From a virus, in the IMG/VR virus record IMGVR_UViG_3300045971_000356, positions 102,303-166,302 of that record: 64,000 nt of DNA; one strand, written 5' to 3'. A model generated the notes under the pieces. It searched no databases. It was not told the DNA's origin and saw nothing but the letters and a program-made list of their open reading frames with translations. Of this stretch, positions 17,013-63,520 are shown in pieces; position 1 is the stretch's first letter, and every line of letters starts with the position of its first letter. A program made the position numbers and the translations under genes.

Positions 17013-17036
17013 AAAGCCCTGGAATCGCAGGGCTTT
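17013..17036 (+). terminator. Rho-independent terminator
   Basis: AAAGCCCTG / CAGGGCTTT stem, 6-nt loop, T run. Confidence 0.88.
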
Positions 17037-17066
17037 TTCATGATTATCTATATGTAAAGCGTTCAC

Positions 17067-17074
17067 GATAAATA
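17067..17074 (+). promoter_or_regulatory. T4-type late promoter (GATAAATA) of the tagged-protein operon
   Basis: Predicted +1 is 17080, the A of the first ATG. It drives a gap-free run of genes to 25216. Confidence 0.75.
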
Positions 17075-17079
17075 AGAAC

Positions 17080-19269
17080 ATGAGAGTAAAACACTTTATC
17101 GCAGAACAGCAATTAGACGAGTTGGCAATGAACCCAACCTCCCTCCGCAGTGTCGCCGCAAAAATAGATGCCCGCGTTGGCATGGAGTTTGAAATGTATG
17201 TGCCCGACACAAATGGCGGAGAAGGCGATAGTGATTACGATGAATGGGAACCAGATTACGAAATGGATGAGTCAGTGTCTGATTTTGCCGACATTATAGC
17301 ATTCTTTAACAGCGGTGAATTTGCGGGCTCTTCTGGCCGTGCTTTAGGATTGTTTAAAGAGAAAATGGAGGAAGAATTTTTCGAATGGGTAGAAGAACAA
17401 ATACACGATAGTTGGCGCAAAGAAGGTCGTGATGCTATACGCGACTACATGGTAAACAACGATCTGTGGGACGAGGACGAGGCAATCACACTTGCGTTTG
17501 AGGAAATGGATCTCACAGACGACGAGAAAAATCGTGCTGAAAAAGTTGGAGCCCAGTTAAATGCCCGGAAATATAATCGCGTAAAAGGTGAAGTAAGTTA
17601 TCGCGGTGATGATGAAAAAAATTGGGATGAAGCAGCCAAAAGAGCAGAAGATGCGTTTGAAGAACGGGTTGGTGAAGAGTGGCAAGGGGAAGGTGAAATA
17701 TCCGACGCTGCTTTTGAAGAATACCAAAGTGAGGAACGCGAGAACTATTCAGAGCAAGATTTTTTGCGTGACAAAGGAATAAGAACAGCACTTAACGCTT
17801 TTGAAGAATTTGAACCGCGTGATGTCAACTGGCCACACATGGTCAATGTTGGCGGTGGCGGAAATGGGTCGCAGAGCGCAGATGATGTGGCACGAGATTT
17901 TGAAGAAATGATAGGTCGCCCAGTAATGTCAAGCGATAACTATCATGGAGTAAAGCGTAACGGTGTATCATACATTGTGGAGCCAGACTCAAGTTTAGAT
18001 GAGGCTAATAGCGGCGAGGATGCTGGGTTAGAGTTTGTATCCCCACCACTGCCTGTCAATGACATGCTGTCCGATTTAAAGAAAGTTAAAACATGGTGTG
18101 ACGATAAGGGATGCTACACTAACAGCAGCACTGGGTTACATATAAACATTAGTGTGCCAGGGATGGATGAAGAAGGTAAGTTAGATTATGTGAAGTTAGC
18201 ATTGCTCATGGGTGACAAGCATGTCATTGACCAGTTTGGTAGAGCAGGTAACACTTACGCAAAGTCCGCAATGGACATGATTAAAACTGCGGTTAGAACT
18301 CGCCCTGAGTCCGCCGCAGCAATGCTTGACAAAATGAAGGGCGGACTTGACAAGTTAGCAAGTAAAATAATTCACACCGGTAAAACAGAAAAATACACCA
18401 GCATCAACAACAAAGGAAACTACATAGAGTTTCGTAGTCCAGGCGATGACTGGCTTGGGAAATATTACAATCAGATTGAACCCACAGTGTTGCGTTTAGT
18501 TGTGGCGCTGGACGCAGCATGCGATCCAGAAAAATCTCGCCAAGAGTATCTTAAAAAGTTATACACTTTGCTAACACCATCGTCAAGCGCAGATCCACTC
18601 GCATATTTCGCACAGTATGCGGCAGGGGAGATTCCTAAGGCTGCGTTACGCTCGTTCATCAAACAGGTTCAGTTGACACGAAAAACTAAGCGTGAAGATG
18701 AAAAATTTGGCCCAGTGACAACTTGGACTGTCACTGACAATGTTTATGGGTATGTCAAGGGGGTCAAAGCACGGTCAGCAGCAGAGGCAATATCTGCTAC
18801 TAAACTTCTTTTAGGTGGAGATAGTGTGAATGCTCCGGATAGTCAGTTTACTGCGGTACAAAAAACACCGCAGCAAGCACCAGTGGACAATCTTGAAGGT
18901 AGGCCGTGGGCAAGATGGCGTATAAATGCTACTGCTGGCCGCACTATCCCAGTTTCTGCCAGGTCACATGCTGAGGCTATTCAACGGTGCGGTATACCAG
19001 AAGAACAAATAGTCAGTGTTGTCATTGACGATGGAAATTTAAGACCACCGCAGCAGGAACCTCAACGTAGAGAAGAGACCGACTTTGGCGAAGATGTTCC
19101 ATGGGAAATATACGATAGAGCATCAGGTGAGCGAAGATTTGTATCGTTTATGTCACAAGCAAATAATGGTCAGTTGGCGGCAGCAAACGCAGTAGCAATG
19201 TTAAACAACATAGCCACACCTGATGATCAGCGTCGTGGATTAGGTGTGCGTATGGTAGGTGGTGTGTAA
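17080..19269 (+). CDS. Amidoligase-like protein with capsid-targeting tag
   Basis: 729 aa. N-terminal tag MRVKHFIAE (ends I-A-E, matching the L/I-x-E cleavage rule of T4-type prohead protease). Amidoligase_2-type signatures follow: VGMEFEMY (about 34-41), YIVEPDSSL and GLEFVSPPL (about 300-330), TGLHINIS (about 348), YTSINNK..YIEFRSPG (about 445). A long acidic helical insert lies between the first two. C-terminal 200 residues are different, possibly binding modules. Family members form amide bonds or modify peptides/cell wall. Probably packaged and injected (inference). Confidence 0.8.
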   Translation: MRVKHFIAEQQLDELAMNPTSLRSVAAKIDARVGMEFEMYVPDTNGGEGDSDYDEWEPDYEMDESVSDFADIIAFFNSGEFAGSSGRALGLFKEKMEEEFFEWVEEQIHDSWRKEGRDAIRDYMVNNDLWDEDEAITLAFEEMDLTDDEKNRAEKVGAQLNARKYNRVKGEVSYRGDDEKNWDEAAKRAEDAFEERVGEEWQGEGEISDAAFEEYQSEERENYSEQDFLRDKGIRTALNAFEEFEPRDVNWPHMVNVGGGGNGSQSADDVARDFEEMIGRPVMSSDNYHGVKRNGVSYIVEPDSSLDEANSGEDAGLEFVSPPLPVNDMLSDLKKVKTWCDDKGCYTNSSTGLHINISVPGMDEEGKLDYVKLALLMGDKHVIDQFGRAGNTYAKSAMDMIKTAVRTRPESAAAMLDKMKGGLDKLASKIIHTGKTEKYTSINNKGNYIEFRSPGDDWLGKYYNQIEPTVLRLVVALDAACDPEKSRQEYLKKLYTLLTPSSSADPLAYFAQYAAGEIPKAALRSFIKQVQLTRKTKREDEKFGPVTTWTVTDNVYGYVKGVKARSAAEAISATKLLLGGDSVNAPDSQFTAVQKTPQQAPVDNLEGRPWARWRINATAGRTIPVSARSHAEAIQRCGIPEEQIVSVVIDDGNLRPPQQEPQRREETDFGEDVPWEIYDRASGERRFVSFMSQANNGQLAAANAVAMLNNIATPDDQRRGLGVRMVGGV

Positions 19270-20630
19270 TGTTTTTAACCGAATTTTTTAAAGATGATGA
19301 GCGTGCTCAGATTGAAAGATTACGCGGCACTATTCCACTTGAAACCTGGTGTTCTATTCTCGAACATCACTTAGTCAATGACAGCATACCACTATTGGAA
19401 TCACTTGATCAGAATTTAGTTGATAAAATTAGAAATACCCAATCGTTATCCGCAAGCGTGTCAGTGGGTGACGAATGTATAATTATGCCAATTATTATTA
19501 TCAATAATACGTTACAAATATATGACACTCAAGGAAATTACCCAGCAAAGTCTCAAGTGGAATTTAGTTTAGTAACAGCGAAAGACGGACAGGTTATAAC
19601 AGTTAAATTTAATGATGGCACAGTGTCAACCTTTCCAAATGAGAGATTGTCAAAGCTAACTTATATGACGGTGATTTTATCCAAAAGTAAACAAGACTAT
19701 AACAAATTGCTGACATGGGTAAAATCAATAAGCGATACTGATCTTCCGCCAGTGGCGACCTTGGCAGAATCAAAATTGATGGAATCTGCGACCGCAGAAA
19801 TCTACCACTATGCTAACACGAGCCTTGCGGCAAAGATAATGCGTGACGGTATGTTCAAGTTGAGCAACACTACAGGCAACCAATCTGAAGAAAAATACGC
19901 ATTGCCTGGCTATCCATATTTTTTAAGCACTACTCGAAGTAAAGTGGGTGACTACCATCGCTATGCTGGCTCATCAGCCTGTATGTTTGTTCTTGATGGC
20001 AACTGGTTTAACCAGCATTATAAATCACGCCCAATAGATTACTGGGATCGCTCGTGGAACTATCCTGATTCCCCACGTACTCGTGAAAGTGAAGATCGTA
20101 TTTACAGCAAGTCCCCGTCTATTCCGTTAAACGGCGTTAAAGCAGTTCATGTGTACATTCAAGAACAAAGCGAGTATAGAAGTCCAGAAGTTCGCGGTAT
20201 TTTAATCCAAGCTAAGAAGATGGGCATACAAGCTTATCTATACACTGATGAAACTGCGTGGAGATTACAAAATATTCGCCGTGCTGTAACACCAGGACAA
20301 GCCGCAGCGGTGCTAAAAGGTCCACAACAGCCTGGTTATTCACGCCAACCGTATGACGCAGTTGAGCCATGGTTAGAACTAATCATGAAAAAGAACAAGG
20401 CAGAGTTGTCACCCAAGGCAGAGAAATTGCGTTATAATTTAGTGTACTATGGATCACGATACGAAAACGAGGACAGTGGATTGTCGAATGACATGGCAAA
20501 CTCCCGCAAGCCAGACTCTGGCGGCTACGACATCGCAGTGAAGATAACGGACTACATGCGTAGAAATAGAATACCAGATTTGCTTACATTGAAAAACATG
20601 CTGGTTAAAAAGTGGGATAACATCAAATGA
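19269..20630 (+). CDS. Putative ADP-ribosyltransferase-like virion protein
   Basis: 453 aa, TAATG-coupled. N-terminus MFLTEFFKDD is a variant of the tag. Middle section reads IYHYANTSLAAKIMRDGMF, then YPYFLSTTRSKVGDYH, then RESEDRIYS about 90 residues later: the H/R...STT...ExE order of ADP-ribosyltransferase folds. T4 packages the ADP-ribosyltransferase Alt in its head by the same route, so an Alt-like role is plausible. Catalytic assignment is by pattern only; relatives in phages are often unannotated. Confidence 0.6.
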   Translation: MFLTEFFKDDERAQIERLRGTIPLETWCSILEHHLVNDSIPLLESLDQNLVDKIRNTQSLSASVSVGDECIIMPIIIINNTLQIYDTQGNYPAKSQVEFSLVTAKDGQVITVKFNDGTVSTFPNERLSKLTYMTVILSKSKQDYNKLLTWVKSISDTDLPPVATLAESKLMESATAEIYHYANTSLAAKIMRDGMFKLSNTTGNQSEEKYALPGYPYFLSTTRSKVGDYHRYAGSSACMFVLDGNWFNQHYKSRPIDYWDRSWNYPDSPRTRESEDRIYSKSPSIPLNGVKAVHVYIQEQSEYRSPEVRGILIQAKKMGIQAYLYTDETAWRLQNIRRAVTPGQAAAVLKGPQQPGYSRQPYDAVEPWLELIMKKNKAELSPKAEKLRYNLVYYGSRYENEDSGLSNDMANSRKPDSGGYDIAVKITDYMRRNRIPDLLTLKNMLVKKWDNIK

Positions 20631-20809
20631 CTAATCAAAATAATACCCCAATTAAAAGACGAAGGTTATATAAAGAGCAATCTGAAAATTCTGTTCTAAA
20701 AAATAATGCTTCGATCGAAAATCAATTGTCGCAAACAGTTATAATAATGCGTCAAATGCATGCTCTTGTTACGAAGTTAGAACATGAAAATCAAAGAAAT
20801 ACTAAGTGA
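20627..20809 (+). CDS. Small coiled-coil protein
   Basis: 60 aa, basic N-terminus (KRRRLYKEQ) and a heptad-like helix after residue 25. ATGA overlap upstream; overlaps the next gene by 26 nt. No tag. Confidence 0.55.
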   Translation: MTNQNNTPIKRRRLYKEQSENSVLKNNASIENQLSQTVIIMRQMHALVTKLEHENQRNTK

Positions 20810-21086
20810 GTCAGCGGATTGGATCCACAATTTTTGGCTACTTCATTCAGTGGACATTAAATCTTTCTTGGACGATACACAAAAATTATATCAATTGTAT
20901 AATGTATCATCGGAAAAAGATTTAATTAAATCTGAATTAGTGAGGACATATAGTTATTTAGATGAATTATTGCGAAATCCAAAATGGGAACACCTTGAAG
21001 AAGATCCAGATTATGACAAGATATATGATGGTTTACTTGATGTTTACGAAGGTATTCAATCTTTTTTACGAGCAAATAGTAAATGA
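20784..21086 (+). CDS. Tagged virion protein, family A
   Basis: 100 aa, tag MKIKEILSE then Ser. Body is an all-helical domain with L.....Y..L..L...P.W..L..DP....IY, shared with the gene at 21487 (paralogue). Function unknown; likely internal head protein. Confidence 0.7.
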   Translation: MKIKEILSESADWIHNFWLLHSVDIKSFLDDTQKLYQLYNVSSEKDLIKSELVRTYSYLDELLRNPKWEHLEEDPDYDKIYDGLLDVYEGIQSFLRANSK

Positions 21087-21490
21087 AATCCACAGAGTTT
21101 ATTGACGAGCATAGTAACTATGCTATCAACCCAGCATACACACCAGAGGTAATGCGTGAGCTAACTCTTATGTGCCGCGCGGCTGAAGGTTACTTTGAAA
21201 AGCATGGGTTCAAACTACACTTCACTGACCACTTTTTCGATCAGATGAAATTAAAGCGTGGCAATCGCGACATTTACACTACACAGGATTTAATGGCAAC
21301 GCTGGTGAAGATTTTACAACGCGGCATGCAGTTTTTCAAAGGCAAAGTGCCAGGCACAAATTTTGTTTTTTACGATCAGCACACTAATATTCACATCGCA
21401 ATAAAGCGTGATAATGTAGATTTTTATGTTGCTACTACCACTGTTCGCGACTACAAATGGACTGGTGAAGGACAGGTGATAAGACTATGA
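21083..21490 (+). CDS. Tagged virion protein with RelE/BECR-like pattern
   Basis: 135 aa, tag MKSTEFIDE. Then LHFTDHFFDQMKLKRGNRDIYTTQDL and a run of beta strands (TNFVFYDQ..NIHIAIKR....FYVATT). The helix-then-four-strand order with His/Arg resembles RNase-toxin (RelE/BECR) folds, but that is a weak, structural-pattern guess. ATGA overlaps at both ends. Confidence 0.65.
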   Translation: MKSTEFIDEHSNYAINPAYTPEVMRELTLMCRAAEGYFEKHGFKLHFTDHFFDQMKLKRGNRDIYTTQDLMATLVKILQRGMQFFKGKVPGTNFVFYDQHTNIHIAIKRDNVDFYVATTTVRDYKWTGEGQVIRL

Positions 21491-21795
21491 GAGCAAAAGA
21501 ATTTATTACTGAGTCGGCTGAGACTATTGAAACGTATTTGGCACTTATGGGATTTTCATACACAAAGTTAGAGCAGCAGTCTTCTTTAGTAAAACAATAT
21601 TATGATGCCCACAAAATAAGTCATGAAAAAATGAAGAGTTATCTAATAGATATCAATATAGCAATACACTCAGTCACTGACGACCCAAATGTATGGAATA
21701 AATTCAGTGATGATCCGGAAGTTAGTGTTATATACAACAAGATAGCAACCTTGGCAAATAGCAACTATGAATATTTAGAGAGGAATACAGCATAA
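21487..21795 (+). CDS. Tagged virion protein, family A (paralogue)
   Basis: 102 aa, tag MRAKEFITE then Ser. Helical body aligns with the gene at 20784 (Y..L......DDP..W..F.DDPE...IY). TAATG to the next gene. Confidence 0.7.
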   Translation: MRAKEFITESAETIETYLALMGFSYTKLEQQSSLVKQYYDAHKISHEKMKSYLIDINIAIHSVTDDPNVWNKFSDDPEVSVIYNKIATLANSNYEYLERNTA

Positions 21796-22388
21796 TGTTT
21801 AACAGAATACCACTGTGGAATGAGCGGCAAATTTTAATTAGCGAATCAACATATCTTGCTGATACCCATTGGGAAAAAAACCTTGCTTTGCGCGGAAAAA
21901 AAGTTGAGGTAATGCTTGAACAAATAAGTAGTGAATTAAACGAGGTAAACATAGACAACAGCAAGGGTGCTGGTGCTGTACCATACAATGCTGACGTTGA
22001 TTACTTTGGTGTTCGTGTGTTGATGGAACCGTCTACATTTTTAGCGTTAGCAGCACCACTGACAGAGCCAGTGAGCAAAGAAGGGCTAATGAAGCATTTA
22101 CAAAATGGCGGTTCCATTGGTGCTCCATTCCTTGATATCAATGTGCCGCCAGAGTGGGACGATGGCAACTTCAAGCAGTATGCTAAGATACGCGGGCACG
22201 AAGGTCGCAACAGGATGATGGCAGTTATGGATCTTGAAGGCGATGCTCCTATTGAGGTGCATTTGTTTTTCAAGCAGTATCGCCGCCGCGAAGTAACAGA
22301 TCAGATGATTGCTAAGGCCAATGAGGGTATGATTAGAGAACAAACGACCACATTGATACCTGGACCATTGTTTAAGGTAGTAGCATGA
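21795..22388 (+). CDS. Hypothetical virion protein
   Basis: 197 aa. Begins differently (MFNRIPLWNER) but has LISE|S about residue 14-18. Conserved-looking blocks: GAGAVPYNADVDYFGVRVLM.PSTFL, ISPP-type proline segment and IRGHEGRNRMMAV..LEGDAPIEVHLFF. The HEGRNR block is seen in phage proteins of unknown function often near ParB-like genes. Overlaps both neighbours. Confidence 0.65.
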   Translation: MFNRIPLWNERQILISESTYLADTHWEKNLALRGKKVEVMLEQISSELNEVNIDNSKGAGAVPYNADVDYFGVRVLMEPSTFLALAAPLTEPVSKEGLMKHLQNGGSIGAPFLDINVPPEWDDGNFKQYAKIRGHEGRNRMMAVMDLEGDAPIEVHLFFKQYRRREVTDQMIAKANEGMIREQTTTLIPGPLFKVVA

Positions 22389-22828
22389 GAGCAACTGAAT
22401 TCTTATCTGAAGGTATTATCAACTGGGTATCAAGAAAACTTGGTAGAGCGTGGGGCAAGCCCGGAGACGTAGTACATGGTAATGTGGTGGCAGACTATTT
22501 AGAAAATTCAACGTACCATACAGAAAGCAAGCTAAAAAAAATTAGAAAAAGTAAATTTCAATTGACTAATTTAGATTTAGCGACAGCCGAGAAATACAGG
22601 CATTTTACTAACTCCCAAAATCACGGGTCCGTTATAGATATTGACAAATTAGATAATGCACGGCAGATGAAGATTACATATGACAGCTTGATTAAATATC
22701 CCCCAGTGTTAGCACACGATGGATTTATTTGGGATGGCAATCATCGTCTTGAACGAGCAATAGAGTTGCAGTTACCCAGCATTCCTGTATTATTACAAGT
22801 TAGTATGGATAAAAGGAGTAGTATATGA
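22385..22828 (+). CDS. Tagged ParB-like protein
   Basis: 147 aa, tag MRATEFLSE then Gly. C-terminal half contains YPPVLAHDGFIWDGNHRLERAIELQL, the substrate/nucleotide pocket motif of ParB/sulfiredoxin-like domains (P......DG.HR..A). Members include NTPases, nucleases and enzymes. Probably injected cargo. Confidence 0.7.
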   Translation: MRATEFLSEGIINWVSRKLGRAWGKPGDVVHGNVVADYLENSTYHTESKLKKIRKSKFQLTNLDLATAEKYRHFTNSQNHGSVIDIDKLDNARQMKITYDSLIKYPPVLAHDGFIWDGNHRLERAIELQLPSIPVLLQVSMDKRSSI

Positions 22829-22980
22829 ATGATCAACCAGAAAAATTACAATTCAATATTGACGGCTCAATTAAAGAAAATAGTCAACCCATTGATGCCG
22901 CACAAGAAAAAAAGTATTTAGACGATCTTGCAGTAGAGATAAATCAATGGTGTGAGGAAATCTTAAATGCGAGCAACTGA
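22825..22980 (+). CDS. Small acidic hypothetical protein
   Basis: 51 aa; RBS AAAAGGAG, ATGA overlap upstream, and 14-nt overlap with the next gene. Acidic, helical C-terminus (LDDLAVEINQWCEEIL). No tag. Confidence 0.6.
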   Translation: MNDQPEKLQFNIDGSIKENSQPIDAAQEKKYLDDLAVEINQWCEEILNASN

Positions 22981-23446
22981 ATTTTTACTTGAAGCAACCG
23001 GTGGGATCATGAACATTTTGCGCCGTGAGTTACCGGGCTGGCCTGATTATATTATCAAGGATATGGTCTACACTACTATCAATAATCAGAAAGATTTAGA
23101 AGAGAAGATAGAGCATGTACGGTGGTTAGCAACACAAATTTCATCTTGGAAATTCTATCCTAAAATGCCACTTACATTTGATATGCTAAGTCAAGACACA
23201 CAAAAGAAAATGAAAGTTGATCGTAACTTTGGATCTAAGAATCCGTTTGGAGTCGTTAACGATGAACAGCGAAGTGCTACTGCTGATACTATTGTTGGCA
23301 GTAAGGGGATGGAAAATTTGCCACCAGTGATAATGGTTAAAGAAGCAGACGGGCTCGACTTGTGGGAAGGTTGGCATAGAACCATGGCAGCATTTCGGTC
23401 TCACCCAGAAGGATTTAAAATAAATGCGTGGATAGGACAAAAATGA
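22967..23446 (+). CDS. Tagged ParB-like protein 2
   Basis: 159 aa, tag MRATEFLLE then Ala. Contains LPPVIMVKEADGLDLWEGWHRTMAAF, the same P......EG.HR..A pocket as the gene at 22385, but the rest is different. Stop overlaps the next ATG. Confidence 0.7.
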   Translation: MRATEFLLEATGGIMNILRRELPGWPDYIIKDMVYTTINNQKDLEEKIEHVRWLATQISSWKFYPKMPLTFDMLSQDTQKKMKVDRNFGSKNPFGVVNDEQRSATADTIVGSKGMENLPPVIMVKEADGLDLWEGWHRTMAAFRSHPEGFKINAWIGQK

Positions 23447-24096
23447 GAGCAAACGAATTTTTACTTGAAGGATTAAATCATCCAATGATTGTAGTGGATG
23501 TACAGCCAGAGTACGCTTACTATACACCACAGACTGAAAAAATCTGTGCTGACATTATTCGCTTTGTCACTAAGCAAACTGGTCCAGTGTTGATGCTTGT
23601 CAATGCTGAGGATTCTGGCGTATCTGCAGACACAAAAGAGTTTATCACACAATATTGGAACAACATAGATGTTGAAGATTGGGACGACGAAGATCCGTCT
23701 GTCGTAACCAACAACGTTAACTGGTCGCGGTTTACCTTCATTGATAAGGGATATGGCCACCTTAGGTCCTGGATGGATCAAGGTGTTCCGCCCGCCGTTA
23801 TAATTAAAGTGATACGAGCAATGTATCAAGAAAAAGTAAACGATAGCAGAGAATTATTTGGCGGCGAAGACTCTGATGAATATGAAGCAGGAATGCAAAC
23901 TCTTATGGGAAATTATGTCAGTCATGCCATAGGCGGTGATTGTATATCCGTTGGTTGGGCGTGTGTTGCTACATTGAAAAAATTTAGTGGTGCTTACTTA
24001 GTTGGTGGCGGAAGGAACGAGTGCTTACGAGAAGTTGAATTATTGATGAATGCGTTTAACATTAAATATAAGAGAATAGACTCATTAGTATACTAA
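23443..24096 (+). CDS. Tagged isochorismatase-like protein
   Basis: 217 aa from ATG 23443 (ATGA overlap); an in-frame GTG at 23428 would spoil the tag. Tag MRANEFLLE then Gly. The body opens with MIVVDVQPEYAYY, like the first strand and catalytic Asp of cysteine-hydrolase (isochorismatase) folds, and ends with VGGGRNECLREVELLMNAF containing a Cys after a Gly-rich loop, like the family's nucleophile region. Function tentative. Confidence 0.65.
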   Translation: MRANEFLLEGLNHPMIVVDVQPEYAYYTPQTEKICADIIRFVTKQTGPVLMLVNAEDSGVSADTKEFITQYWNNIDVEDWDDEDPSVVTNNVNWSRFTFIDKGYGHLRSWMDQGVPPAVIIKVIRAMYQEKVNDSRELFGGEDSDEYEAGMQTLMGNYVSHAIGGDCISVGWACVATLKKFSGAYLVGGGRNECLREVELLMNAFNIKYKRIDSLVY

Positions 24097-24097
24097 T

Positions 24098-25216
24098 ATG
24101 AAAATAAACGAAATATTACGAGAATTAGCCTACCCAGGCAACATTGGGATTATGGAACTAACTAAGTTCTTTCAGATGGCCACTGATGAGCAAAAAATGC
24201 ATTTTAAGAAATTAAAAGCATCAGGCAAAACAGAAGCAGCATGGAAATTTATGCAGTCTGTCGTTGATGTTAAGCTGCATGAAGGTGGCTGGGCTAACCC
24301 AGTTACACAAGGAACGCATATTACACCACAGTTAGTTGACATGGTGTTTAAAGTATTGAACATTTTCGTTAAACGATTAAATGTATTTCTACAAAGCAAG
24401 GAAATTCCGCCAGTTGAGTTAGGTAATCCTTGCGGTAGCACAACGTATTATAAACGTGATTTAATGCAAAACCCCACCCGTGAATACGGTGACATAGATG
24501 TCAACTTGTTCATCCCACGCATTGAGGGAACAACAAATAATGCTAACGCTGATATTATCCGCACTGCGGTTCAAGAGTTTTGCGAAGGTGACCCAGATTT
24601 CCAAACAAGTAACGGAACAAACGTTATCGTTAGGGTTGGAAAAGACTATATACAAGTTGATTTAATAACGGCGTTTTACCACAACAAAGAATGGACTAAT
24701 GCATTAGCACCTGAATACAATGTCAAAGGTGTGTTATGCAACAGCATTTACTCATCACTTGGCGAAGCGTTAAGCCTTAGCATTGGTGGTGGACATGGTG
24801 TTCAAGGTAAGTTTGATAGCGAAGGAAACTTAGTGCCGTTCAAAACAGTTAAAGGAGTTACTCTTAAAACGATCACAAACAAACCAGACTCGTGGGCGTT
24901 AGACATTGCTAAGTTCTTTGGATGTAAGAAAATACACCCATTGCTTAAACAATATCCAGGCAAGTTAGACGAAGTGAGAGTTGCTGACATGATAAACAGT
25001 ATTAAGGGAATTGCACTATCCATGGAGTTAAATGGAGTTGGTAACTCGTCAGAGTTACTGCAAAAAATCAAATCAATATACTTGGGCAAAATAGAGAAGG
25101 CTGCAACGAGCAGCAAGTATGACAAAGCAGCAACGCCCGAAGCAAAAGCAAAAGCAGATCACACTAAAGAAATGTTGATACAAAAGTCAACTGAATTTGC
25201 CAAAATGTTTGATTAA
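24098..25216 (+). CDS. Tagged nucleotidyltransferase-like protein
   Basis: 372 aa, tag MKINEILRE then Leu. Contains GSTTYYKRD......EYGDIDVNLFIP, the GS....(D/E)xD arrangement of the polymerase-beta nucleotidyltransferase fold, followed by YIQVDLIT, a candidate third acidic residue. C-terminal 60 residues are Lys/Ala-rich. Could transfer NMP to RNA, protein or small molecule. Last gene of the late operon. Confidence 0.7.
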   Translation: MKINEILRELAYPGNIGIMELTKFFQMATDEQKMHFKKLKASGKTEAAWKFMQSVVDVKLHEGGWANPVTQGTHITPQLVDMVFKVLNIFVKRLNVFLQSKEIPPVELGNPCGSTTYYKRDLMQNPTREYGDIDVNLFIPRIEGTTNNANADIIRTAVQEFCEGDPDFQTSNGTNVIVRVGKDYIQVDLITAFYHNKEWTNALAPEYNVKGVLCNSIYSSLGEALSLSIGGGHGVQGKFDSEGNLVPFKTVKGVTLKTITNKPDSWALDIAKFFGCKKIHPLLKQYPGKLDEVRVADMINSIKGIALSMELNGVGNSSELLQKIKSIYLGKIEKAATSSKYDKAATPEAKAKADHTKEMLIQKSTEFAKMFD

Positions 25217-29927: not shown

Positions 29928-31337
29928 ATGAACGCACCCCAGACTATTTTGGCAGAGATTACTGCTAACGATTCAAAACTTGCCAAACAAGCTATCCTCG
30001 AACGCGAGGCAAAGGCTGGCAATGACAACTTTTTCAAAGGGCTGTTGCTTGCTTGCAACCAGGTGATCACATTCGGGGTCAAAGCGGTTGAAGAAAAGCC
30101 AGTCAAACGTGCTAACGAGCCAGCGCCAAAAGGCTTATCACATGATGTGTTTTTCAAGCTGACTGACAAATTGGCAAAGCGTGAGCTGACTGGTGATGCT
30201 GCGCAGGTAGCTATTGCGCATGCCCGCAACATGGCAACGGCAGAAGAATGGAACGGCTGGTTCCGTTTGGTTCTAATCAAGGACTTGAAGGCAGGCTTTA
30301 GCGAAAGCACTATTAACAAAGTTTGCGAAACAAAATACCCACAATATTCAGTCCCGTTGTTTGAATGCCAGTTGGCTCACGACGGTGCTAACTACGAAGA
30401 AAAGTTAGTTGGCAAGAAACTTGTTGACACAAAACTTGACGGTATGCGTGTCATTACCGTTGTTTACCCTGACGGTAAGGTGGACCAGTTTAGCCGCAAC
30501 GGCAAGGAACTTGTCAACTTCATTAAGGTGAAGGAACAGTTGAGTAAGGTTGCTAAATTTTTCGCAGAGCCTACTGTGCTGGACGGCGAGATTATGTCAG
30601 CCTCATTCCAAGACTTGATGAAGCAAGCACGTCGCAAAACTGATGTGCAAGCAGACGACGCAGTGTTGAATTTATTTGACATCGTTACGTTGAAAGACTT
30701 CCAAGCAGGCATTAGCAACAATCGTCAAATTGACCGTAGCTACACGCTTGGCATTTGGTTTGAGAACGTAAAAGACAAAGTGCCTAACGTTAACGTGCTG
30801 GGTCAAGAACTTGTTGATCTTGACACCCCTGAAGGGCAAGCCCGTTTGGATGAGATCAACGCCATTGCGTTGGCTGGTAAGTATGAAGGCATCATGCTTA
30901 AAGATCCAGAAGCACCATACGAGTGCAAACGCAGTGTGGCATGGTTGAAGATCAAACCTTACATTGAAGTGACGCTCAAAGTTGTCGACGTTGAAGAAGG
31001 TAGTGCAGACAGCAAATTTGTTGGCACCATGGGCGCAGTGGTGTTTGAAGGCGAAGATGACGGCAAGTTTATTAACGTACATTGCGGCGGTGGCTTCAGC
31101 GTTAAACAACGTGCGCAAATTTGGGCAACCCATACTGGCAAGCCAGTTGAGTGGAAGAAAAAGGAAGGCGGCAAGTGGGTAACTATTGTTGAGCAACCTA
31201 ACAAAGGCGGCATGATTGGCATGCTTGGTGAAGTACGTGCTGACGCTATTACAAAGAGCGATAGCAAGGATCACTACAGCTTGCGTTTTCCGCGGTTCAA
31301 GATTTGGCGTGGTTTTGCGCCTGGTGAAAAACTTTAA
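29928..31337 (+). CDS. ATP-dependent DNA ligase (T4 gp30-like)
   Basis: 469 aa, typical length. Motif I TKLDGMR (adenylated Lys169), motif Ia FSRNGKE, motif III VLDGEI, motif IV EGIMLK, motif V WLKIKP, then an OB-fold ending with KHYSLRFPRF-like DHYSLRFPRFK. Seals nicks during replication and recombination. Own promoter and RBS AAAGG; a lipoprotein gene follows with 9-bp gap. Confidence 0.95.
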   Translation: MNAPQTILAEITANDSKLAKQAILEREAKAGNDNFFKGLLLACNQVITFGVKAVEEKPVKRANEPAPKGLSHDVFFKLTDKLAKRELTGDAAQVAIAHARNMATAEEWNGWFRLVLIKDLKAGFSESTINKVCETKYPQYSVPLFECQLAHDGANYEEKLVGKKLVDTKLDGMRVITVVYPDGKVDQFSRNGKELVNFIKVKEQLSKVAKFFAEPTVLDGEIMSASFQDLMKQARRKTDVQADDAVLNLFDIVTLKDFQAGISNNRQIDRSYTLGIWFENVKDKVPNVNVLGQELVDLDTPEGQARLDEINAIALAGKYEGIMLKDPEAPYECKRSVAWLKIKPYIEVTLKVVDVEEGSADSKFVGTMGAVVFEGEDDGKFINVHCGGGFSVKQRAQIWATHTGKPVEWKKKEGGKWVTIVEQPNKGGMIGMLGEVRADAITKSDSKDHYSLRFPRFKIWRGFAPGEKL

Positions 31338-31346
31338 GGAGATAAC

Positions 31347-31697
31347 ATGAAACATTCAATTAAACTTACTTTTCTCGCACTCGCAGTGGCATCGCTATCT
31401 GCTTGCATGCCTAACTACTCCAACGGCTCACGGGCTGGGGTAGTCAACAAGCTATCTGAAAAAGGGCTGGTATTTAAATCATATGAAGGTGAAATGCTAT
31501 TGGGCGGCATTAGGACTACTGAAAATGGCACTGCCGCAAACTTGTTTGCGTTTAACGTTGACTCCAGTCAAGTCGCTGCCGTTACAGCGGCAATGAAATC
31601 TGGCAAACGGGTTGAGCTCGTTTACCGGCAATGGGCAGTAAGTCCTTTTACCATTGGCTCAGACTACGTCATTATCGACGTTAAGCCAGCGGAGTAA
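31347..31697 (+). CDS. Lipoprotein, common phage family
   Basis: 116 aa. Signal peptide with lipobox LSAC (residues 17-20). Mature part GVVNKLSEKGLVFKSYEGEM and VELVYRQW......SDYVI..V match a family common in phages and bacteria and often mislabelled in databases as 6-phosphogluconate dehydrogenase. True function unknown. RBS AAGGAG. Confidence 0.8.
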   Translation: MKHSIKLTFLALAVASLSACMPNYSNGSRAGVVNKLSEKGLVFKSYEGEMLLGGIRTTENGTAANLFAFNVDSSQVAAVTAAMKSGKRVELVYRQWAVSPFTIGSDYVIIDVKPAE

Positions 31698-31712
31698 AGC
31701 TAAGTAACTAAC

Positions 31713-31946
31713 ATGGAAGAGAAAAACACATACACCCGCACGGTAGTCGTTACTAACGAAGCTCGCTGCCTAAAGTGCCTGGACGTTATTCAGTCTGTCC
31801 ACAGGCACGATTTCAACACTTGCTCATGTGGCAACTTATCTGTTGACGGCGGCAATGCCTACTTACGGCGTAGCGTTCGTGACGGGCACGACAGTTGGGT
31901 AGATTTAAGTGAAACATACGACGAAGAAGTCGAGAAAAACTGGTAA
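31713..31946 (+). CDS. Zinc-ribbon small protein
   Basis: 77 aa. CLKC...SVHRHDFNTCSCGNLSVDGG shows two Cys pairs and the HRHD/VDGG signature of a small conserved phage/bacterial family (DUF7695-like). Probably binds one zinc. Role unknown. Confidence 0.75.
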   Translation: MEEKNTYTRTVVVTNEARCLKCLDVIQSVHRHDFNTCSCGNLSVDGGNAYLRRSVRDGHDSWVDLSETYDEEVEKNW

Positions 31947-31952
31947 CACATT

Positions 31953-32126
31953 ATGACAAACAAAACACAAACATGGGAAGTTACGGTCGAAGAAGACCCA
32001 GCAGATTCTGAAAATGTAATCCTTCCGTTCCCGGAAGATATGCTCGCTCAGTTAGGCTGGGTTGATGGTGACACACTAAACTGGGCCGTACAAGAAGACG
32101 GCACAGTTATTCTCACTAAAGTTTAA
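31953..32126 (+). CDS. AbrB/SpoVT-like small protein
   Basis: 57 aa. LPFPEDMLAQLGWVDGDTLNWAVQEDG is the swapped-hairpin AbrB pattern (P...L..LGW..GD.L......DG). Such proteins bind DNA, often as antitoxins; no toxin gene is beside it. Ends 3 nt inside the convergent gene. Confidence 0.65.
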   Translation: MTNKTQTWEVTVEEDPADSENVILPFPEDMLAQLGWVDGDTLNWAVQEDGTVILTKV

Positions 32127-32494
32127 AGTGGTGGCAGGTTAGCGATAATACGGGCTGCCCTGCCCGCTTTGATAAGGCCAATTGACTCTAAAAATTTGAC
32201 GCCAGAAATTGTGTCAACTAAGTGCAAATCTACCTCGCCGCTAACTTCCAAATCTTTTTGCAACGTAGTTACTGTTGCTTTTATCGACCCAGAAAATGCT
32301 GAGTTGTATTGAATATTATCGATTGCAGTTCTCTCTGCTAATGTAAATAATTTTCTAAATTGATACTTAGTTAGCATTAACGGTTCTGCTGAAATAGGTG
32401 CAGCCACAACTACGCTTGGGTGTAATTGTTCTTGAGTTAACGGATTTGGACTACCAATAACGATTGGTTTCTTTTGAATAATTTGTGTTGCCAT
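32123..32494 (-). CDS. Paralogue of tail-fibre-locus 'LTKYQFR' proteins
   Basis: 123 aa. The segment MLTKYQFRKLFTLAERTAIDN and the C-terminal ESIGLIKAGRAARI are the same as in the plus-strand genes at 40804 and 41505, while the N-terminal domain of those is missing. Minus-strand RBS (GGAG) and late promoter (32519-32526). A relocated copy of a tail-associated protein; the function of the family is unknown. Confidence 0.7.
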   Translation of the reverse strand: MATQIIQKKPIVIGSPNPLTQEQLHPSVVVAAPISAEPLMLTKYQFRKLFTLAERTAIDNIQYNSAFSGSIKATVTTLQKDLEVSGEVDLHLVDTISGVKFLESIGLIKAGRAARIIANLPPL

Positions 32495-32518
32495 TTTGAG
32501 AATATCTCCAGTATCAAG

Positions 32519-32526
32519 TATTTATC
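32519..32526 (-). promoter_or_regulatory. T4-type late promoter (GATAAATA)
   Basis: Minus strand, about 25 bp ahead of the ATG at 32494. Confidence 0.6.
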
Positions 32527-32550
32527 TATTCAATCAAAACACACAGAAAA

Positions 32551-32573
32551 GAAAAGGGCATTTAGCCCTTTTC
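32551..32573 (-). terminator. Bidirectional Rho-independent terminator
   Basis: GAAAAGGGC / GCCCTTTTC stem with 5-nt loop; separates the two minus-strand genes. Confidence 0.8.
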
Positions 32574-32766
32574 CAATAATCGTTTACCCATTCCTGGATC
32601 TACGAATTTTGCTACAGCAAGAGTTCTAAATAATGCTAACCTGTCAGTAATGTGATCTGGTAAGTCCCCATTATTTAACTTACTAACTCTGAGCCTGACT
32701 CGACTTTGGATGGTGATGATTTGAGAGTCATCACCATCAGTGTTGTCACTGTCGTCAGGGTCTGTA
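32562..32766 (-). pseudogene. Open +1-frame extension or gene remnant
   Basis: Right after the stop of the secreted Lys/Ala-rich gene, the +1 frame is open for about 67 codons: acidic NTDPDDSDNTDGDD then a protein-like IITIQSRVRLRVSKL...DRLALFRTLAVAKF. No ATG/GTG/TTG start exists in it. Either the 3' remnant of another gene or an extension reached by +1 frameshifting at AAG TAA. Confidence 0.4.
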
Positions 32767-33027
32767 TTACTTAGAAGCTGCGACTGCTGGTACTGCGGCT
32801 GGTTTGACTGCTTCAGCAGCCTTGCTTTTTGCAGGCTTCACAGTCTTTGCTTTCTTAGCCTTAGCTGCGACTTTGGTCTCATTCACCTTAGCTTGAACTG
32901 CTGGCTCAGCTTTCTTAGCTGCGATTGGCTTAGCCACAACTGGTGCAGATGCTGGAGCAACTGGAGCAGTTTGAGCGAAAGCAGAGATAGACAAGGCGGA
33001 TACGAGAGCGATAAGCAATTTTGACAT
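32767..33027 (-). CDS. Secreted Ala/Lys/Pro-rich protein
   Basis: 86 aa. Sec signal peptide (MSKLLIALVSALSISAFA|Q), then low-complexity AAKKAEPAV..AK.KAKTVKPAKSK. Exported to the periplasm. RBS AAGGAAA. A perfect inverted repeat lies in its 5' leader. Role unknown. Confidence 0.75.
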   Translation of the reverse strand: MSKLLIALVSALSISAFAQTAPVAPASAPVVAKPIAAKKAEPAVQAKVNETKVAAKAKKAKTVKPAKSKAAEAVKPAAVPAVAASK

Positions 33028-33051
33028 AATAAATTTCCTTTTTGGTTAATG

Positions 33052-33070
33052 TAGCAGAACTTTTCTGCTA
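33052..33070 (-). promoter_or_regulatory. Inverted repeat in leader of the secreted-protein gene
   Basis: TAGCAGAA - 3 nt - TTCTGCTA, perfect 8-bp arms, between the gene's RBS and its presumed promoter; operator or mRNA hairpin. Confidence 0.5.
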
Positions 33071-33139
33071 GTCTATATATAACGCGGTAGAGTGGCGATC
33101 CGTTGACACCTATTTTGGTTAAATTGCTCAAAATATCTG

Positions 33140-33168
33140 TTGCTATTGCTCCACGAGTTTGCTATTAT
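33140..33168 (+). promoter_or_regulatory. Sigma70-like promoter
   Basis: TTGCTA, 17-bp spacer, TATTAT; ATG at 33175 is seven bases after the -10. Confidence 0.7.
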
Positions 33169-33174
33169 AGCGGT

Positions 33175-33201
33175 ATGTTGCGAAAGCAGCTATTTACTTA
33201 A
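33175..33201 (+). CDS. Leader mini-ORF
   Basis: Eight codons (MLRKQLFT) beginning at the predicted +1, stop overlapping the RBS (TTAAAGGAAAA) of the HTH gene; could couple or attenuate its translation. Confidence 0.3.
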   Translation: MLRKQLFT

Positions 33202-33214
33202 AGGAAAATGAAAA

Positions 33215-33460
33215 ATGGCAGAAACTACACAAAAACTCACACAAGCACAATTGCTGGAAACCACTCTCCGTGGCAAGGGCATTGAACTTACCGCAGCACA
33301 AGCTCGTGCTAAGTATGGTATCAAGAACCTCCGTGCTCGTATGACGGATTTGCGTCAAGCTGGGTTGAACATCAAGACCCGCGTTAACTATCGTGGTGCT
33401 AACGCCTATTCTATCACTGCTCGTGATGTGAATGGTAGCCGCAAGTTAGTTACACTATAA
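33215..33460 (+). CDS. HTH-like DNA-binding protein
   Basis: 81 aa. Motif LTAAQARAKYGIKNLRARMTDLRQAGLNIKT is a winged-helix pattern common to small phage regulators, followed by a basic beta wing (GANAYSIT). RBS AAGGAAA. Followed by a UUCG-loop terminator. Confidence 0.75.
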   Translation: MAETTQKLTQAQLLETTLRGKGIELTAAQARAKYGIKNLRARMTDLRQAGLNIKTRVNYRGANAYSITARDVNGSRKLVTL

Positions 33461-33485
33461 AAGTAACACGTCGCGAAAGCGCAAC

Positions 33486-33507
33486 AATGGGGCATTCGTG
33501 CCCCATT
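33486..33507 (+). terminator. Rho-independent terminator
   Basis: AATGGGGCA / TGCCCCATT with TTCG tetraloop. Confidence 0.88.
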
Positions 33508-33511
33508 TCTA

Positions 33512-33540
33512 TTGTTAAATATCAAATAGTAGTATATAAT
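33512..33540 (+). promoter_or_regulatory. Sigma70-like promoter, leaderless architecture
   Basis: TTGTTA, 17-bp spacer, TATAAT; ATG at 33548 is eight bases after the -10. Confidence 0.75.
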
Positions 33541-33547
33541 AGCTAAC

Positions 33548-34402
33548 ATGACCACAGAAATCTTCGCAATCAGTGACTTACATTTAGACATGTCACGAAA
33601 AATACCAACGTTACCTGGCGGTGACATTTTGGTTCTTCCGGGCGACATTACTGAGGCTCGTAACATTAAGAAGTTCACGGAGCAAGAACATGCTGCGATG
33701 CGTGGGATTGAGTACTCGAAACTGACTGTTAAAGAGCGTGTTGCTAAGTTTTTACGCGAAGAATGTTCTGAAAAATACAACCATATCGTGTATGTGGCTG
33801 GTAATCACGAGCATTACCGCAACACGTATCAAAAGACAATCAAGCACATAAAGGAAAACGTCCCATATAACTTTCATGTGTTAGAGAAAGACGCATTCAT
33901 CGTTAAAGACGTTATGTTTTTGGGCGGAACATTGTGGACTGATATGAATCGTGGCGACCCTATTACACGGCAAGTCGTGAAATACGGGATGAACGATTTC
34001 AAATACATCCGTCGTGAGAGAAACGGGGATTACATCAAGTTTTCGCCTGCTGACGCTGAAGCCGAGCACCATTCCACACTTGCGTATTTTAAGACAATGC
34101 TCACCTTGCCTACAATGTGGGACAAGAAAGTCGTTATTATTACGCATCATGCGCCAACCGGGCAAAGCACTGCACCACAGTATAAGTCGGACTTTGCGAT
34201 GAATGGTGCTTACCATAGCAGACTTGATGATTTTATATTGGATCATCCGCAGATTCAGCTTTGGTTTCACGGCCATACTCATCACAAGTTTGATTATATG
34301 GCGGGCGACTTTACTCGCGTTATTTGTAACCCGTATGGGTATCGCATGAGCGGGTTTGATGAGGATACTGGGTGGGACCCAGAGTTAAAATTCACTGTTT
34401 AA
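33548..34402 (+). CDS. Calcineurin-like metallophosphoesterase
   Basis: 284 aa. All metal-binding motifs present in order: SDLHLD (D9, H11), GDI (PGDI), GNHEHY, ITHHAP and GHTHH. Substrate in phages may be nucleotides, nucleic acid ends or phosphoproteins; not decidable. Leaderless early gene. Confidence 0.9.
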   Translation: MTTEIFAISDLHLDMSRKIPTLPGGDILVLPGDITEARNIKKFTEQEHAAMRGIEYSKLTVKERVAKFLREECSEKYNHIVYVAGNHEHYRNTYQKTIKHIKENVPYNFHVLEKDAFIVKDVMFLGGTLWTDMNRGDPITRQVVKYGMNDFKYIRRERNGDYIKFSPADAEAEHHSTLAYFKTMLTLPTMWDKKVVIITHHAPTGQSTAPQYKSDFAMNGAYHSRLDDFILDHPQIQLWFHGHTHHKFDYMAGDFTRVICNPYGYRMSGFDEDTGWDPELKFTV

Positions 34403-38973: not shown

Positions 38974-39711
38974 ATGGCAGTTCAGTTTACAACCAATGGC
39001 GATTCTTTGGCGAACGCTACCGATACCACGTTCTTCTCATCGTCTACGGCAGCACAGTCCATCAACGTATGGATTAATGCACTCTGGGACGGGGCAGCAA
39101 AAACGAGCAGTATGGTAGGAATGTATAACGCAACTGGAACCACAGCTATTCAAATTGGATCTCGTACCGCAGCGGGACAATGTGATATATGGACTTGGGG
39201 AGGTGGTATAATGATTACCTCTACTGGTATCACGATCCCAGCAAATACTTGGGTTAACATTACATACACGTATGATGGGACGAGCCATCGTCTGTATTAT
39301 AACGGTGTGTTAAATAACACAGTAGTTAACGGAACTGCTCCCCGTACTGCGCAAATTGCAGGTAACCTCAATCAAGTATTCTTGAATGGATTTTCCACTG
39401 GGGCAGCATCCGAAACAGCAACATTTCAAGTTGATACCTACTATTATTATAGTCGTGTTCTGTCAGTTGATGAAATAATGACAATTTACAATGCACGTGG
39501 TAATCGCCATGGTATTGTATATGGATCATTGTTACGATACGAATTCGACGAAGGTGTTCAAGGCGATAATGTTGCATCTATTAGAAATCAAACAACATAT
39601 CCATTGGCAGTTAGTGACTTAGTATCAAACAGTGCTAGAACACCCAAAGTGACTTATGCTCCGGGATCAGTTAACAGTAATCTCAGAGTTCCGCTTGGGT
39701 GCAACGGATAA
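38974..39711 (+). CDS. LamG/concanavalin-like tail protein
   Basis: 245 aa, no signal peptide. Residues 20-160 form a LamG-like jelly roll (INVWINA..., NTWVNITYTYDGTSHRLYYNGVL, YYSRVLSVDEIMTIYN), a carbohydrate-binding fold used by fibres. Starts 1 nt after the previous stop. Confidence 0.8.
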   Translation: MAVQFTTNGDSLANATDTTFFSSSTAAQSINVWINALWDGAAKTSSMVGMYNATGTTAIQIGSRTAAGQCDIWTWGGGIMITSTGITIPANTWVNITYTYDGTSHRLYYNGVLNNTVVNGTAPRTAQIAGNLNQVFLNGFSTGAASETATFQVDTYYYYSRVLSVDEIMTIYNARGNRHGIVYGSLLRYEFDEGVQGDNVASIRNQTTYPLAVSDLVSNSARTPKVTYAPGSVNSNLRVPLGCNG

Positions 39712-39714
39712 ATA
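39707..39714 (+). promoter_or_regulatory. T4-type late promoter (GATAAATA), leaderless architecture
   Basis: Predicted +1 is 39720, the A of the next ATG; overlaps the end of the previous gene. Confidence 0.65.
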
Positions 39715-39719
39715 TCATT

Positions 39720-40802: not shown

Positions 40803-40803
40803 A

Positions 40804-41259: not shown

Positions 41260-41263
41260 TATC

Positions 41264-41482: not shown

Positions 41483-41504
41483 ATAAGTGTAAAGGATAGT
41501 AACA

Positions 41505-41933: not shown

Positions 41934-41956
41934 GTTTTATTAAAGGAGAGACCACT

Positions 41957-42649: not shown

Positions 42650-42665
42650 ATTTAGTCATTTACGT

Positions 42666-42695
42666 TTGACTTAACATGCCTTGTTTTACTATAAT
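42666..42695 (+). promoter_or_regulatory. Sigma70-like promoter, leaderless architecture
   Basis: TTGACT, 18-bp spacer, TATAAT; ATG at 42701 is six bases after the -10. Confidence 0.8.
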
Positions 42696-42700
42696 CAGGC

Positions 42701-43458: not shown

Positions 43459-43489
43459 AGCCATTTCTTTAGGTAATCTTCACTTTTTG

Positions 43490-44016: not shown

Positions 44017-44017
44017 C

Positions 44018-62938: not shown

Positions 62939-63520
62939 ATGAAGGCAAATGAAATATTAGAGGCATTTAATGCAGGCAGAATGCCGGCAATCAAATCTGA
63001 TGATTATCAAGAATCTTACCTTCCTATTTTGCAAAAAGCAAAAAAGTTAGCTGATGTTAGAAAAAATTTAGAACTGTTTTGCTATGCTAACAAAATTTAT
63101 TTGTTAGTTAAAGATGAAGAAGTAATTGTTGGGAATTTGAACTTATCACCACAAAACATCGCAGGTAAAGAATATTTGCATGTAGATGGGATCTTTGTGC
63201 GGGAAGAATATAGAAAAACCGCAGCACTTTATTGGTTATTATATTCGGTTAAAGAAGTCTTAAAGAGAACCCCAGTCATTGCCGACGGCGCAATGTTTAC
63301 CGACGGGCAAGCACTGATACGAGCGATTCAAGACCATAGTATGTTTAACGCACACAAGTTGAATAAAGACACAGGTGAAAAATCCGAGTTGACTGGTCTA
63401 ATCACCAGCGATGTATATTGCTATATCTTTGAATCAACGAAACTTGGATTTGGTAAACACTTCTTCGAAGGTACAACTTTACCATTTATTTGGTACCCAC
63501 TATTCGAGGAATTGCCATGA
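62939..63520 (+). CDS. GNAT-like protein with capsid-targeting tag
   Basis: 193 aa. N-terminus MKANEILE|A fits the I/L-x-E tag. Body has EEVIVGNLNLSP, YLHVDGIFVREEYRKTAALYWLLYSV, the strand-4/helix-3 acetyl-CoA-binding pattern of GNAT acetyltransferases. Late, near-leaderless, far from the main tagged operon. Likely a packaged acetyltransferase. Confidence 0.7.
   Translation: MKANEILEAFNAGRMPAIKSDDYQESYLPILQKAKKLADVRKNLELFCYANKIYLLVKDEEVIVGNLNLSPQNIAGKEYLHVDGIFVREEYRKTAALYWLLYSVKEVLKRTPVIADGAMFTDGQALIRAIQDHSMFNAHKLNKDTGEKSELTGLITSDVYCYIFESTKLGFGKHFFEGTTLPFIWYPLFEELP

What the first reader, a model, noticed from the sequence alone, without database searches (positions are those of the whole stretch)
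17067..25216. One late operon of eight to ten proteins carrying a T4-type capsid-targeting/prohead-protease tag
Eight proteins (17080, 20784, 21083, 21487, 22385, 22967, 23443, 24098) start with M(R/K)xxE(F/I)(L/I)xE or a close form, and 19269 and 21795 have variants. T4 internal head proteins (IPI-III, Alt) carry a similar N-terminal peptide ending L/I-x-E that is cut by gp21. The genes overlap with no gaps and share one late promoter, so the operon looks like a dedicated set of injected virion cargo with diverse enzyme-like bodies.
Basis: partly seen in the sequence, partly recalled or inferred. Interest (0 to 1): 0.93.

Follow-up and report, generated by a model that had tools for sequence, protein, structure and literature searches.

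The report
Jumbo phage's tagged injection cargo operon
A giant phage carries an operon of mostly unrelated proteins that share the same nine-residue front tag, ending in a site like the one the head protease of phage T4 cuts; this suggests a general 'load me into the virus head' label for enzymes injected into the host, although no experiment yet shows it for this phage.

Summary
Of 12 overlapping genes at 17080-25216, seven begin exactly M[RK]xxE[FI][LI]xE and one has H for the first E (0.045 expected by shuffling). The tag also recurs elsewhere in the 166-kb record. The promised late promoter is not there.

The T4 reading is well supported by comparison. T4 internal proteins II and III begin MKTYQEFIAE|A and gp24 begins MAKINELLRE|S; gp21 is published to cut after L/I-x-E. 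Two body families from the operon have relatives in about 100 viral contigs. In every unique readable copy (23/23 and 38/38) an [LIVF]xE site lies at the body's start, usually at a fixed distance, whether it follows a 9-residue tag or 127-843 upstream residues. Relatives fuse several operon bodies into single chains of 1,000-2,300 residues, resembling 'polyvalent' effectors.

This record lacks a gp21-type protease, but also lacks portal, capsid and terminase, so it is incomplete. Relatives carry the protease, and their capsid proteins have the same L-x-E|G site. In PA5oct, five of nine tagged proteins are virion proteins by published mass spectrometry.

Best reading: a T4-type capsid-targeting and protease tag on an expanded, modular cargo set. 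Packaging, cleavage and injection remain unshown for this phage.

The parts
17080..19269 (+). Cargo gene 1, 729 aa: tag MRVKHFIAE|Q (17080-17106) plus amidoligase body (Pfam Amidoligase_2, residues 270-377)
   Evidence: Pfam above curated cut-off; homologue in Atu_ph07; fused to the ART body in polyproteins L124, L125, L127, L128
19269..20630 (+). Cargo gene 2, 453 aa: N-terminus MFLTEFFKDD, ~160-residue leader, internal site KLME|S (19773-19784, E172), then a DarT-like ADP-ribosyltransferase-fold body
   Evidence: AF2 pLDDT 86.6; Foldseek best hits DarT 7omw E 5e-5 and Tpt1; site kept in 23/23 unique relatives
20784..21086 (+). Cargo gene, 100 aa: tag MKIKEILSE|S (20784-20810), body unknown
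   Evidence: no family match
21083..21490 (+). Cargo gene, 135 aa: tag MKSTEFIDE|H (21083-21109), body unknown
21487..21795 (+). Cargo gene, 102 aa: tag MRAKEFITE|S (21487-21513), body unknown
21795..22388 (+). Cargo gene, 197 aa: variant N-terminus with ILISE|S at residues 13-17 (21831-21845); relatives of the same body carry MRAQEFINE|, MKSSEFITE|
22385..22828 (+). Cargo gene, 147 aa: tag MRATEFLSE|G (22385-22411); body with GNHR motif, possibly ParB/sulfiredoxin-like (motif only)
   Evidence: 50% id to tagged G001 protein MKSTEFITE|G; ParB/DdrB family hits only weak and in relatives
22967..23446 (+). Cargo gene, 159 aa: tag MRATEFLLE|A (22967-22993); GWHR motif body; also found fused upstream of the ART body in L141
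   Evidence: L198 MRAQDFITE|V
23443..24096 (+). Cargo gene, 217 aa: tag MRANEFLLE|G (23443-23469); conserved DVQPEY body of unknown fold
   Evidence: 52 viral contigs; 38/38 unique copies keep [LIF]xE before the body; AF2 pLDDT 86, tag block 52; no significant PDB match
24098..25216 (+). Cargo gene, 372 aa: tag MKINEILRE|L (24098-24124) and second site KLHE|GGWA (24272-24283) before a nucleotidyltransferase-like body (GS..DxD..D motif by eye)
   Evidence: G001 homologue begins MKINEIILE|GGWAS, so the second site is where the homologous body starts
20627..20809 (+). Small untagged ORF, 60 aa, inside the operon
22825..22980 (+). Small untagged ORF, 51 aa, inside the operon
17013..17038 (+). Hairpin AAAGCCCTG-GAATCG-CAGGGCTTT followed by T: terminator-like, marks the upstream edge of the operon
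   Evidence: sequence; not scored by the scan tool
62939..63520 (+). Separate tagged gene in the window, MKANEILE|AFNAG; relative L089 begins MKSNEFTPE|AT

Best explanation
The operon encodes head-internal cargo of a T4-superfamily jumbo phage. Each protein carries a 9-residue N-terminal tag that works like T4's capsid targeting sequence. The front part docks the protein onto the prohead scaffold core. A gp21/S77-type prohead protease then cuts after the Glu of [LI]-x-E, freeing the body inside the head, and the body leaves with the DNA into the next host cell. The bodies are early-infection enzymes (ADP-ribosyltransferase fold, amidoligase, probable nucleotidyltransferase, others) for host takeover or counter-defence. 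Where two bodies are fused, the same cut site sits between them, so separate tagged genes and multi-domain 'polyvalent' proteins are likely two gene layouts of one cargo system. Shown: the tag, its recurrence, site conservation, fusions, and the protease in relatives. Inferred: core docking, cleavage, packaging, injection and the effect on the host.
For: (1) Tag far above chance: 8 of 12 operon genes against 0.045 expected by shuffling. A DNA pattern for it hits 71 times over 25 phage records (chosen partly because they hold related bodies) against 1 hit of the reversed control, and 0 in Lu11. (2) T4's own sequences: IPII and IPIII MKTYQEFIAE|A, gp24 MAKINELLRE|S, gp22 MLKEQLIAE|A. gp21 cuts after L/I-X-E, the first 10 residues of IPIII suffice for targeting, and residues 8 and 10 govern processing (PMC9026906). 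(3) Site conservation: ART-body family, 23/23 unique copies have [LIV]xE exactly 7 residues before [YF]HY, 9 of them 127-843 residues downstream of the start of the open frame; DVQPEY family, 38/38 with [LIF]xE, 34 at exactly 10 residues before the D, P1' G/A/S in 34, 7 internal. (4) Same body, different tags: MRANEFLLE|, MKTFIEFLNE|, MKLKQYLTE|; kinase-like bodies likewise. (5) Fused and free forms keep the site: g47034 SILME|GG / ILTE|GG / SMITE|GG; GNAT EIVTE|L / LAEAVTE|T; 24098 KLHE|GGW against MKINEIILE|GGW. (6) S77 protease above cut-off in relatives G003, G020, G028, in 7 of 8 contigs of 200 kb or more with the DVQPEY body, and in PA5oct, Atu_ph07, SCTP-2 and T4. (7) Capsid proteins of these relatives have ALLE|G or ALTE|G. 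(8) PA5oct: 5 of 9 tagged CDS are ESI-MS/MS virion proteins against 93 of 445 overall, p = 0.022. (9) Atu_ph07's ten-gene array with N-termini mostly M[RK]WxQL[TN]E lies in CDS 31-76, where 29 virion proteins were found (PMC6102473).
Against: No virion proteomics or cleavage data for this phage. The record itself has no detectable S77 protease, explained only by its being incomplete (no portal, capsid protein, terminase or sheath found). G017 (265 kb) and G031 (262 kb) have tags but no S77 hit; G017's capsid gene looks broken or interrupted. The PA5oct enrichment rests on nine proteins and my own motif definition. Some tags have P1' residues (H, Q, L) not typical of T4 sites. Two body families carry most of the conservation argument.
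Confidence: 0.85

Rival explanations
1. The tag only directs proteins into the virion (head or tail) and is not cut; the conserved Glu is part of the docking motif.
For: Targeting and processing are separable in T4: Asp at position 10 blocks cutting but not targeting (PMC9026906). No cleavage data exist here.
Against: The site is also kept internally between fused domains, without the M[RK]xx front part; the docking half varies far more than [LI]xE; P1' is mostly G/A/S, as at T4 cut sites.
Confidence: 0.08
2. Shared ancestry or gene conversion: the genes are recent duplicates and the N-terminus is just what remains similar, or is a translation-initiation element.
For: Two neighbours (22967, 23443) share most tag codons.
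Against: Bodies are mostly unrelated by sequence; tag codons vary synonymously across genes; the same bodies carry different tags in other lineages; the site also occurs far from any start codon.
Confidence: 0.03
3. The tag marks proteins for another phage compartment (baseplate, tail, membrane or an infection vesicle), or is cut by a host protease, rather than for the prohead core.
For: Location in the virion is not tested. PA5oct's mass-spectrometry list covers head and tail proteins alike.
Against: L/I-x-E is gp21's published specificity; the same site lies in the capsid and core-scaffold proteins of these phages; T4 proteins with this N-terminus are prohead core or shell proteins. A phage without S77 shows a different shared N-terminus (Lu11: M[KR]IQLA[VT]A).
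Confidence: 0.04

Closest known systems
T4 internal proteins IPI-IPIII and Alt with the capsid targeting sequence, cut by gp21
   Same: Short N-terminal peptide ending [LI]-x-E, basic residue 2, aromatic/aliphatic pair before the cut, diverse bodies behind one tag, gp21-family protease in relatives
   Different: 9 rather than 10 residues; at least 15 tagged genes in at least two gene clusters instead of a handful of proteins; enzyme bodies; sites also found between fused domains
Polyvalent proteins of phages and plasmids (Iyer et al. 2017, PMC5512222)
   Same: Overlapping domain menu (ART, kinase, ParB-like, acetyltransferase) and predicted co-injection; relatives here fuse 2-3 identified operon bodies plus further domains in one chain
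   Different: In this phage the domains are separate tagged genes. I found no mention of an L/I-x-E prohead-protease site between domains in the passages read; that paper proposes autoproteolysis by its own metallopeptidase domains
phiKZ / SPN3US inner-body and ejection proteins
   Same: Jumbo phage head cargo processed by a gp21-related protease after a Glu
   Different: Published motif S/A-x-E or A-x-E (PMC9026906, PMC10052503) with mostly long propeptides in SPN3US, versus L/I-x-E after a 9-residue tag here
Phage P1 DarB capsid targeting (PMC9024508)
   Same: N-terminal signal that loads anti-restriction cargo into the head
   Different: A signal within the first 30 residues; no sequence similarity tested
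PA5oct (Arenbergviridae), Atu_ph07, Salicola SCTP-2
   Same: Nearest named relatives; synteny at primase-helicase with PA5oct; tagged or tag-like virion proteins in PA5oct; S77 protease in all three
   Different: Fewer tags or lineage-specific ones (Atu_ph07 M[RK]WxQLTE)

Membership tests
T4-type capsid-targeted internal proteins | N-terminal peptide of about 10 residues ending [LI]-x-E | tested here: met
   8 genes; T4 comparison
T4-type capsid-targeted internal proteins | Same peptide on bodies unrelated to each other | tested here: met
   No shared families among bodies; amidoligase against DarT-like fold
T4-type capsid-targeted internal proteins | gp21/S77 prohead protease in the same phage | tested here: inconclusive
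   None in this incomplete record; present in relatives G003, G020, G028 and others, with T4 as working positive control
T4-type capsid-targeted internal proteins | Protease actually removes the peptide | not testable with these tools
   Inferred from site conservation
T4-type capsid-targeted internal proteins | Protein present in the mature head and ejected | not testable with these tools
   Only indirect: PA5oct 5/9 tagged proteins MS-positive; Atu_ph07 cluster
Polyvalent proteins | Several unlike domains in one polypeptide | tested here: not met
   Operon genes mostly have single bodies; but relatives L146, L127, L128 join the same bodies
Polyvalent proteins | Domain menu of the published families | tested here: inconclusive
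   ParB_N, CTP_transf and Kinase-PolyVal hits in relatives or the second cluster, below cut-off
phiKZ-type inner-body proteins | S/A-x-E cleavage motif | tested here: not met
   P3 is L/I at all eight tags; L/I/V/F in relatives
ADP-ribosyltransferase superfamily (19269 body) | ART fold | tested here: met
   AF2 model pLDDT 86.6; DarT and Tpt1 are the only confident PDB matches
ADP-ribosyltransferase superfamily (19269 body) | NAD+-dependent transferase activity | not testable with these tools
   No assay

The most novel reading that the evidence does not exclude
In a broad group of S77-protease jumbo phages the prohead protease works as a polyprotein-processing enzyme: effectors are loaded either as separate [LI]xE-tagged proteins or as long fused chains that the protease cuts apart at conserved inter-domain [LI]xE sites inside the prohead, so 'polyvalent' proteins in these phages are delivered as a set of separate enzymes.
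Probability: 0.55. Interest if true: 0.85.

Novelty: new variant of a known kind. Interest (0 to 1): 0.72.

Why it matters
Most genes of jumbo phages have no known role. A simple rule, [LI]-x-E at residue 9 or right before a conserved body, would pick out which unknown proteins are packed in the head and injected first, where counter-defence and takeover enzymes are expected. It also ties two literatures together (T4 capsid targeting and polyvalent effectors) and offers a short, portable targeting tag for protein delivery by phage.

Tried and rejected
S77 family search in the record alone: no hit, but the named control genomes have none either, so I repeated it with T4, PA5oct and Atu_ph07 as positive controls. 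First tag DNA pattern was misframed by one base; its result is ignored, corrected. I first took the 23443 body for an isochorismatase from its DVQPEY motif; the AF2 model has no significant PDB match (best E 0.12), so that label is dropped. Late promoter: no TATAAATA upstream. Near-identity DNA search of the operon in phage records: none. 24098 and g47034 have no relatives in named phages. Supplementary mass-spectrometry tables of Atu_ph07 could not be read (no look-ups allowed), so which of its tagged proteins were seen in virions is unknown to me. RaK2's 'N-terminal motif' (PMC3622015) concerns tail spikes, not this tag.
Full report
What was checked. The window is the last 64 kb of a 166,302-base virus record. 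I took the rest of the record in stretches and listed its genes. The twelve overlapping genes from 17080 to 25216 are real ORFs. Seven start exactly M[RK]xxE[FI][LIVT]xE and an eighth (17080) has H at position 5. By shuffling N-termini the operon would be expected to give 0.045 loose matches and got 8; the whole record gave 14 against 0.46 expected. Codons differ between the tags, so selection is on the peptide. The tag is not limited to the operon: a second cluster at record positions 46-61 kb carries it on a DUF6267 protein, kinase-like proteins, an acetyltransferase-like protein and small acidic proteins, and another tagged gene lies at window 62939.

What kind of phage. The helicase gene is 48% identical to that of Pseudomonas jumbo phage PA5oct and its kin, then Atu_ph07 and Salicola SCTP-2. 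The block primase, helicase, virion protein ... PAAR protein is shared with PA5oct 145-165 kb, where most proteins are marked ESI-MS/MS. Portal, protease, capsid protein, terminase and sheath of PA5oct have no counterpart in the record, so the record is a fragment and its lack of a prohead protease says nothing.

The T4 comparison. Read from the T4 record, IPII and IPIII begin MKTYQEFIAE|A, gp24 MAKINELLRE|S and gp22 MLKEQLIAE|A. The literature states that gp21 cuts after L/I-X-E, that ten residues of IPIII are enough for targeting, and that residues 8 and 10 govern processing (PMC9026906). The tag here, for example MRAKEFITE|S, differs by one residue in length.

Conservation of the site. The body of 19269 has relatives in 44 viral contigs. 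In all 23 unique copies an [LIV]-x-E site lies exactly seven residues before the [YF]HY motif, followed by S, A, T, G or R. In 14 it ends a short N-terminal tag or leader, such as MRAIEFIIE|SLSR, MKSTEFLTE|TLSR or MQINEIITE|SLSR. In nine it lies 127 to 843 residues into the open frame. In the alignment of 27 sequences, averaging under 50% identity to the window protein, that Glu is invariant. The 23443 body has relatives in 52 contigs. All 38 unique readable copies have [LIF]-x-E before the body, 34 at exactly ten residues from the D of DVQP, 34 with G, A or S after it, seven internal. The Glu was found as the last E upstream of the body, so the constant distance and P3 residue, not the presence of an E, carry the weight. 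Two distant contigs carry the same body behind MKTFIEFLNE| and MKLKQYLTE|, the second next to another gene starting MKFKQYLTE|: the tag follows the phage, the body is shared.

Fusions. In relatives several operon bodies occur in one chain: 21795, 19269 and 24098 in a 1,586-residue frame (L146, L147); 19269 with 17080 in L124, L125, L127 and L128; 22967 with 19269 in L141; 19269 with the acetyltransferase of the second cluster in L134. Junctions keep [LIVM]xE, for example g47034 as SILME|GGNV alone and SMITE|GGNV fused. In 24098 itself the body shared with G001's MKINEIILE|GGWAS begins after KLHE|GGWAN, residue 62. This is what cleavage at the site would select for, and it is hard to explain by a docking motif or a start-codon effect.

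Protease and capsid. With T4, PA5oct, Atu_ph07 and SCTP-2 as positive controls, the S77 family is found in relatives G003, G020 and G028 and in 9 of 13 large contigs that carry the 23443 body, including 7 of 8 of 200 kb or more. Their capsid proteins begin with a leader ending ALLE|G (G003, G020, G028), PA5oct's with ALTE|G. Lu11, which lacks an S77 hit, has a different shared N-terminus, M[KR]IQLA[VT]A, on a row of genes.

Virion data in relatives. In PA5oct five of nine tagged CDS are marked ESI-MS/MS against 93 of 445 overall (hypergeometric p = 0.022; counts and tag definition are mine). One MS-negative case is the scaffold-like 84724, which would be expected to be degraded.

What the cargo does. 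17080 is an amidoligase by Pfam. The 19269 body models with pLDDT 86.6 and its only confident structural matches are DarT and Tpt1, so it has an ADP-ribosyltransferase-type fold. 24098 shows a nucleotidyltransferase-like motif by eye only. 22385 and 22967 show a GxHR motif; relatives give weak ParB hits. 23443 has no match of known structure. These fit early takeover or counter-defence, but no target is known.

Judgement. The tag works like T4's capsid targeting sequence with a prohead protease site (0.85). Membership in the T4 internal-protein class is met on sequence criteria, inconclusive on protease in the same genome, and untested on cleavage and packaging. What is new is the scale, the spread over jumbo phages, and the equivalence of tagged single genes and site-separated fusions. 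In the papers I could search I found no description of this link, but subscription journals and preprints were largely out of reach.

Noticed in passing
Pseudomonas phage Lu11 (L119, L120; record 156291-169839): At least nine genes share M[KR]I[QM]LA[VTIL]A at the N-terminus, several with YH-type ART-like bodies, and the genome has no S77 protease hit: possibly a parallel tag for another protease specificity.
   Followed up: partly
Agrobacterium phage Atu_ph07 (L113, record 39484-50592): Row of about ten genes with N-terminus M[RK]Wx[QD]L[TNI]E or close and YRGM motifs (possible ART family), inside a published virion-protein cluster.
   Followed up: partly
L146 residues ~1255-1268: A tag-like stretch MKIRELLMN|GGWA lies inside a 1,577-residue chain just before the 24098-type body, looking like a fossil start and tag left by gene fusion.
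   Followed up: no
Record 30957-33746 and 63836-67283 (L002-L004, outside window): Helicase-like and ribonucleotide-reductase genes appear split by inteins with endonuclease genes between the halves.
   Followed up: no
PA5oct 260677-262300 (L012): Three neighbouring tagged genes on the minus strand, two with an HExxH-like HELRHALD or HELQHALD motif and both virion proteins by mass spectrometry: candidate injected metallopeptidases.
   Followed up: no
Record G000, many minus-strand genes: Many free-standing HNH or GIY-YIG-like homing endonuclease genes scattered against the direction of the operons.
   Followed up: no
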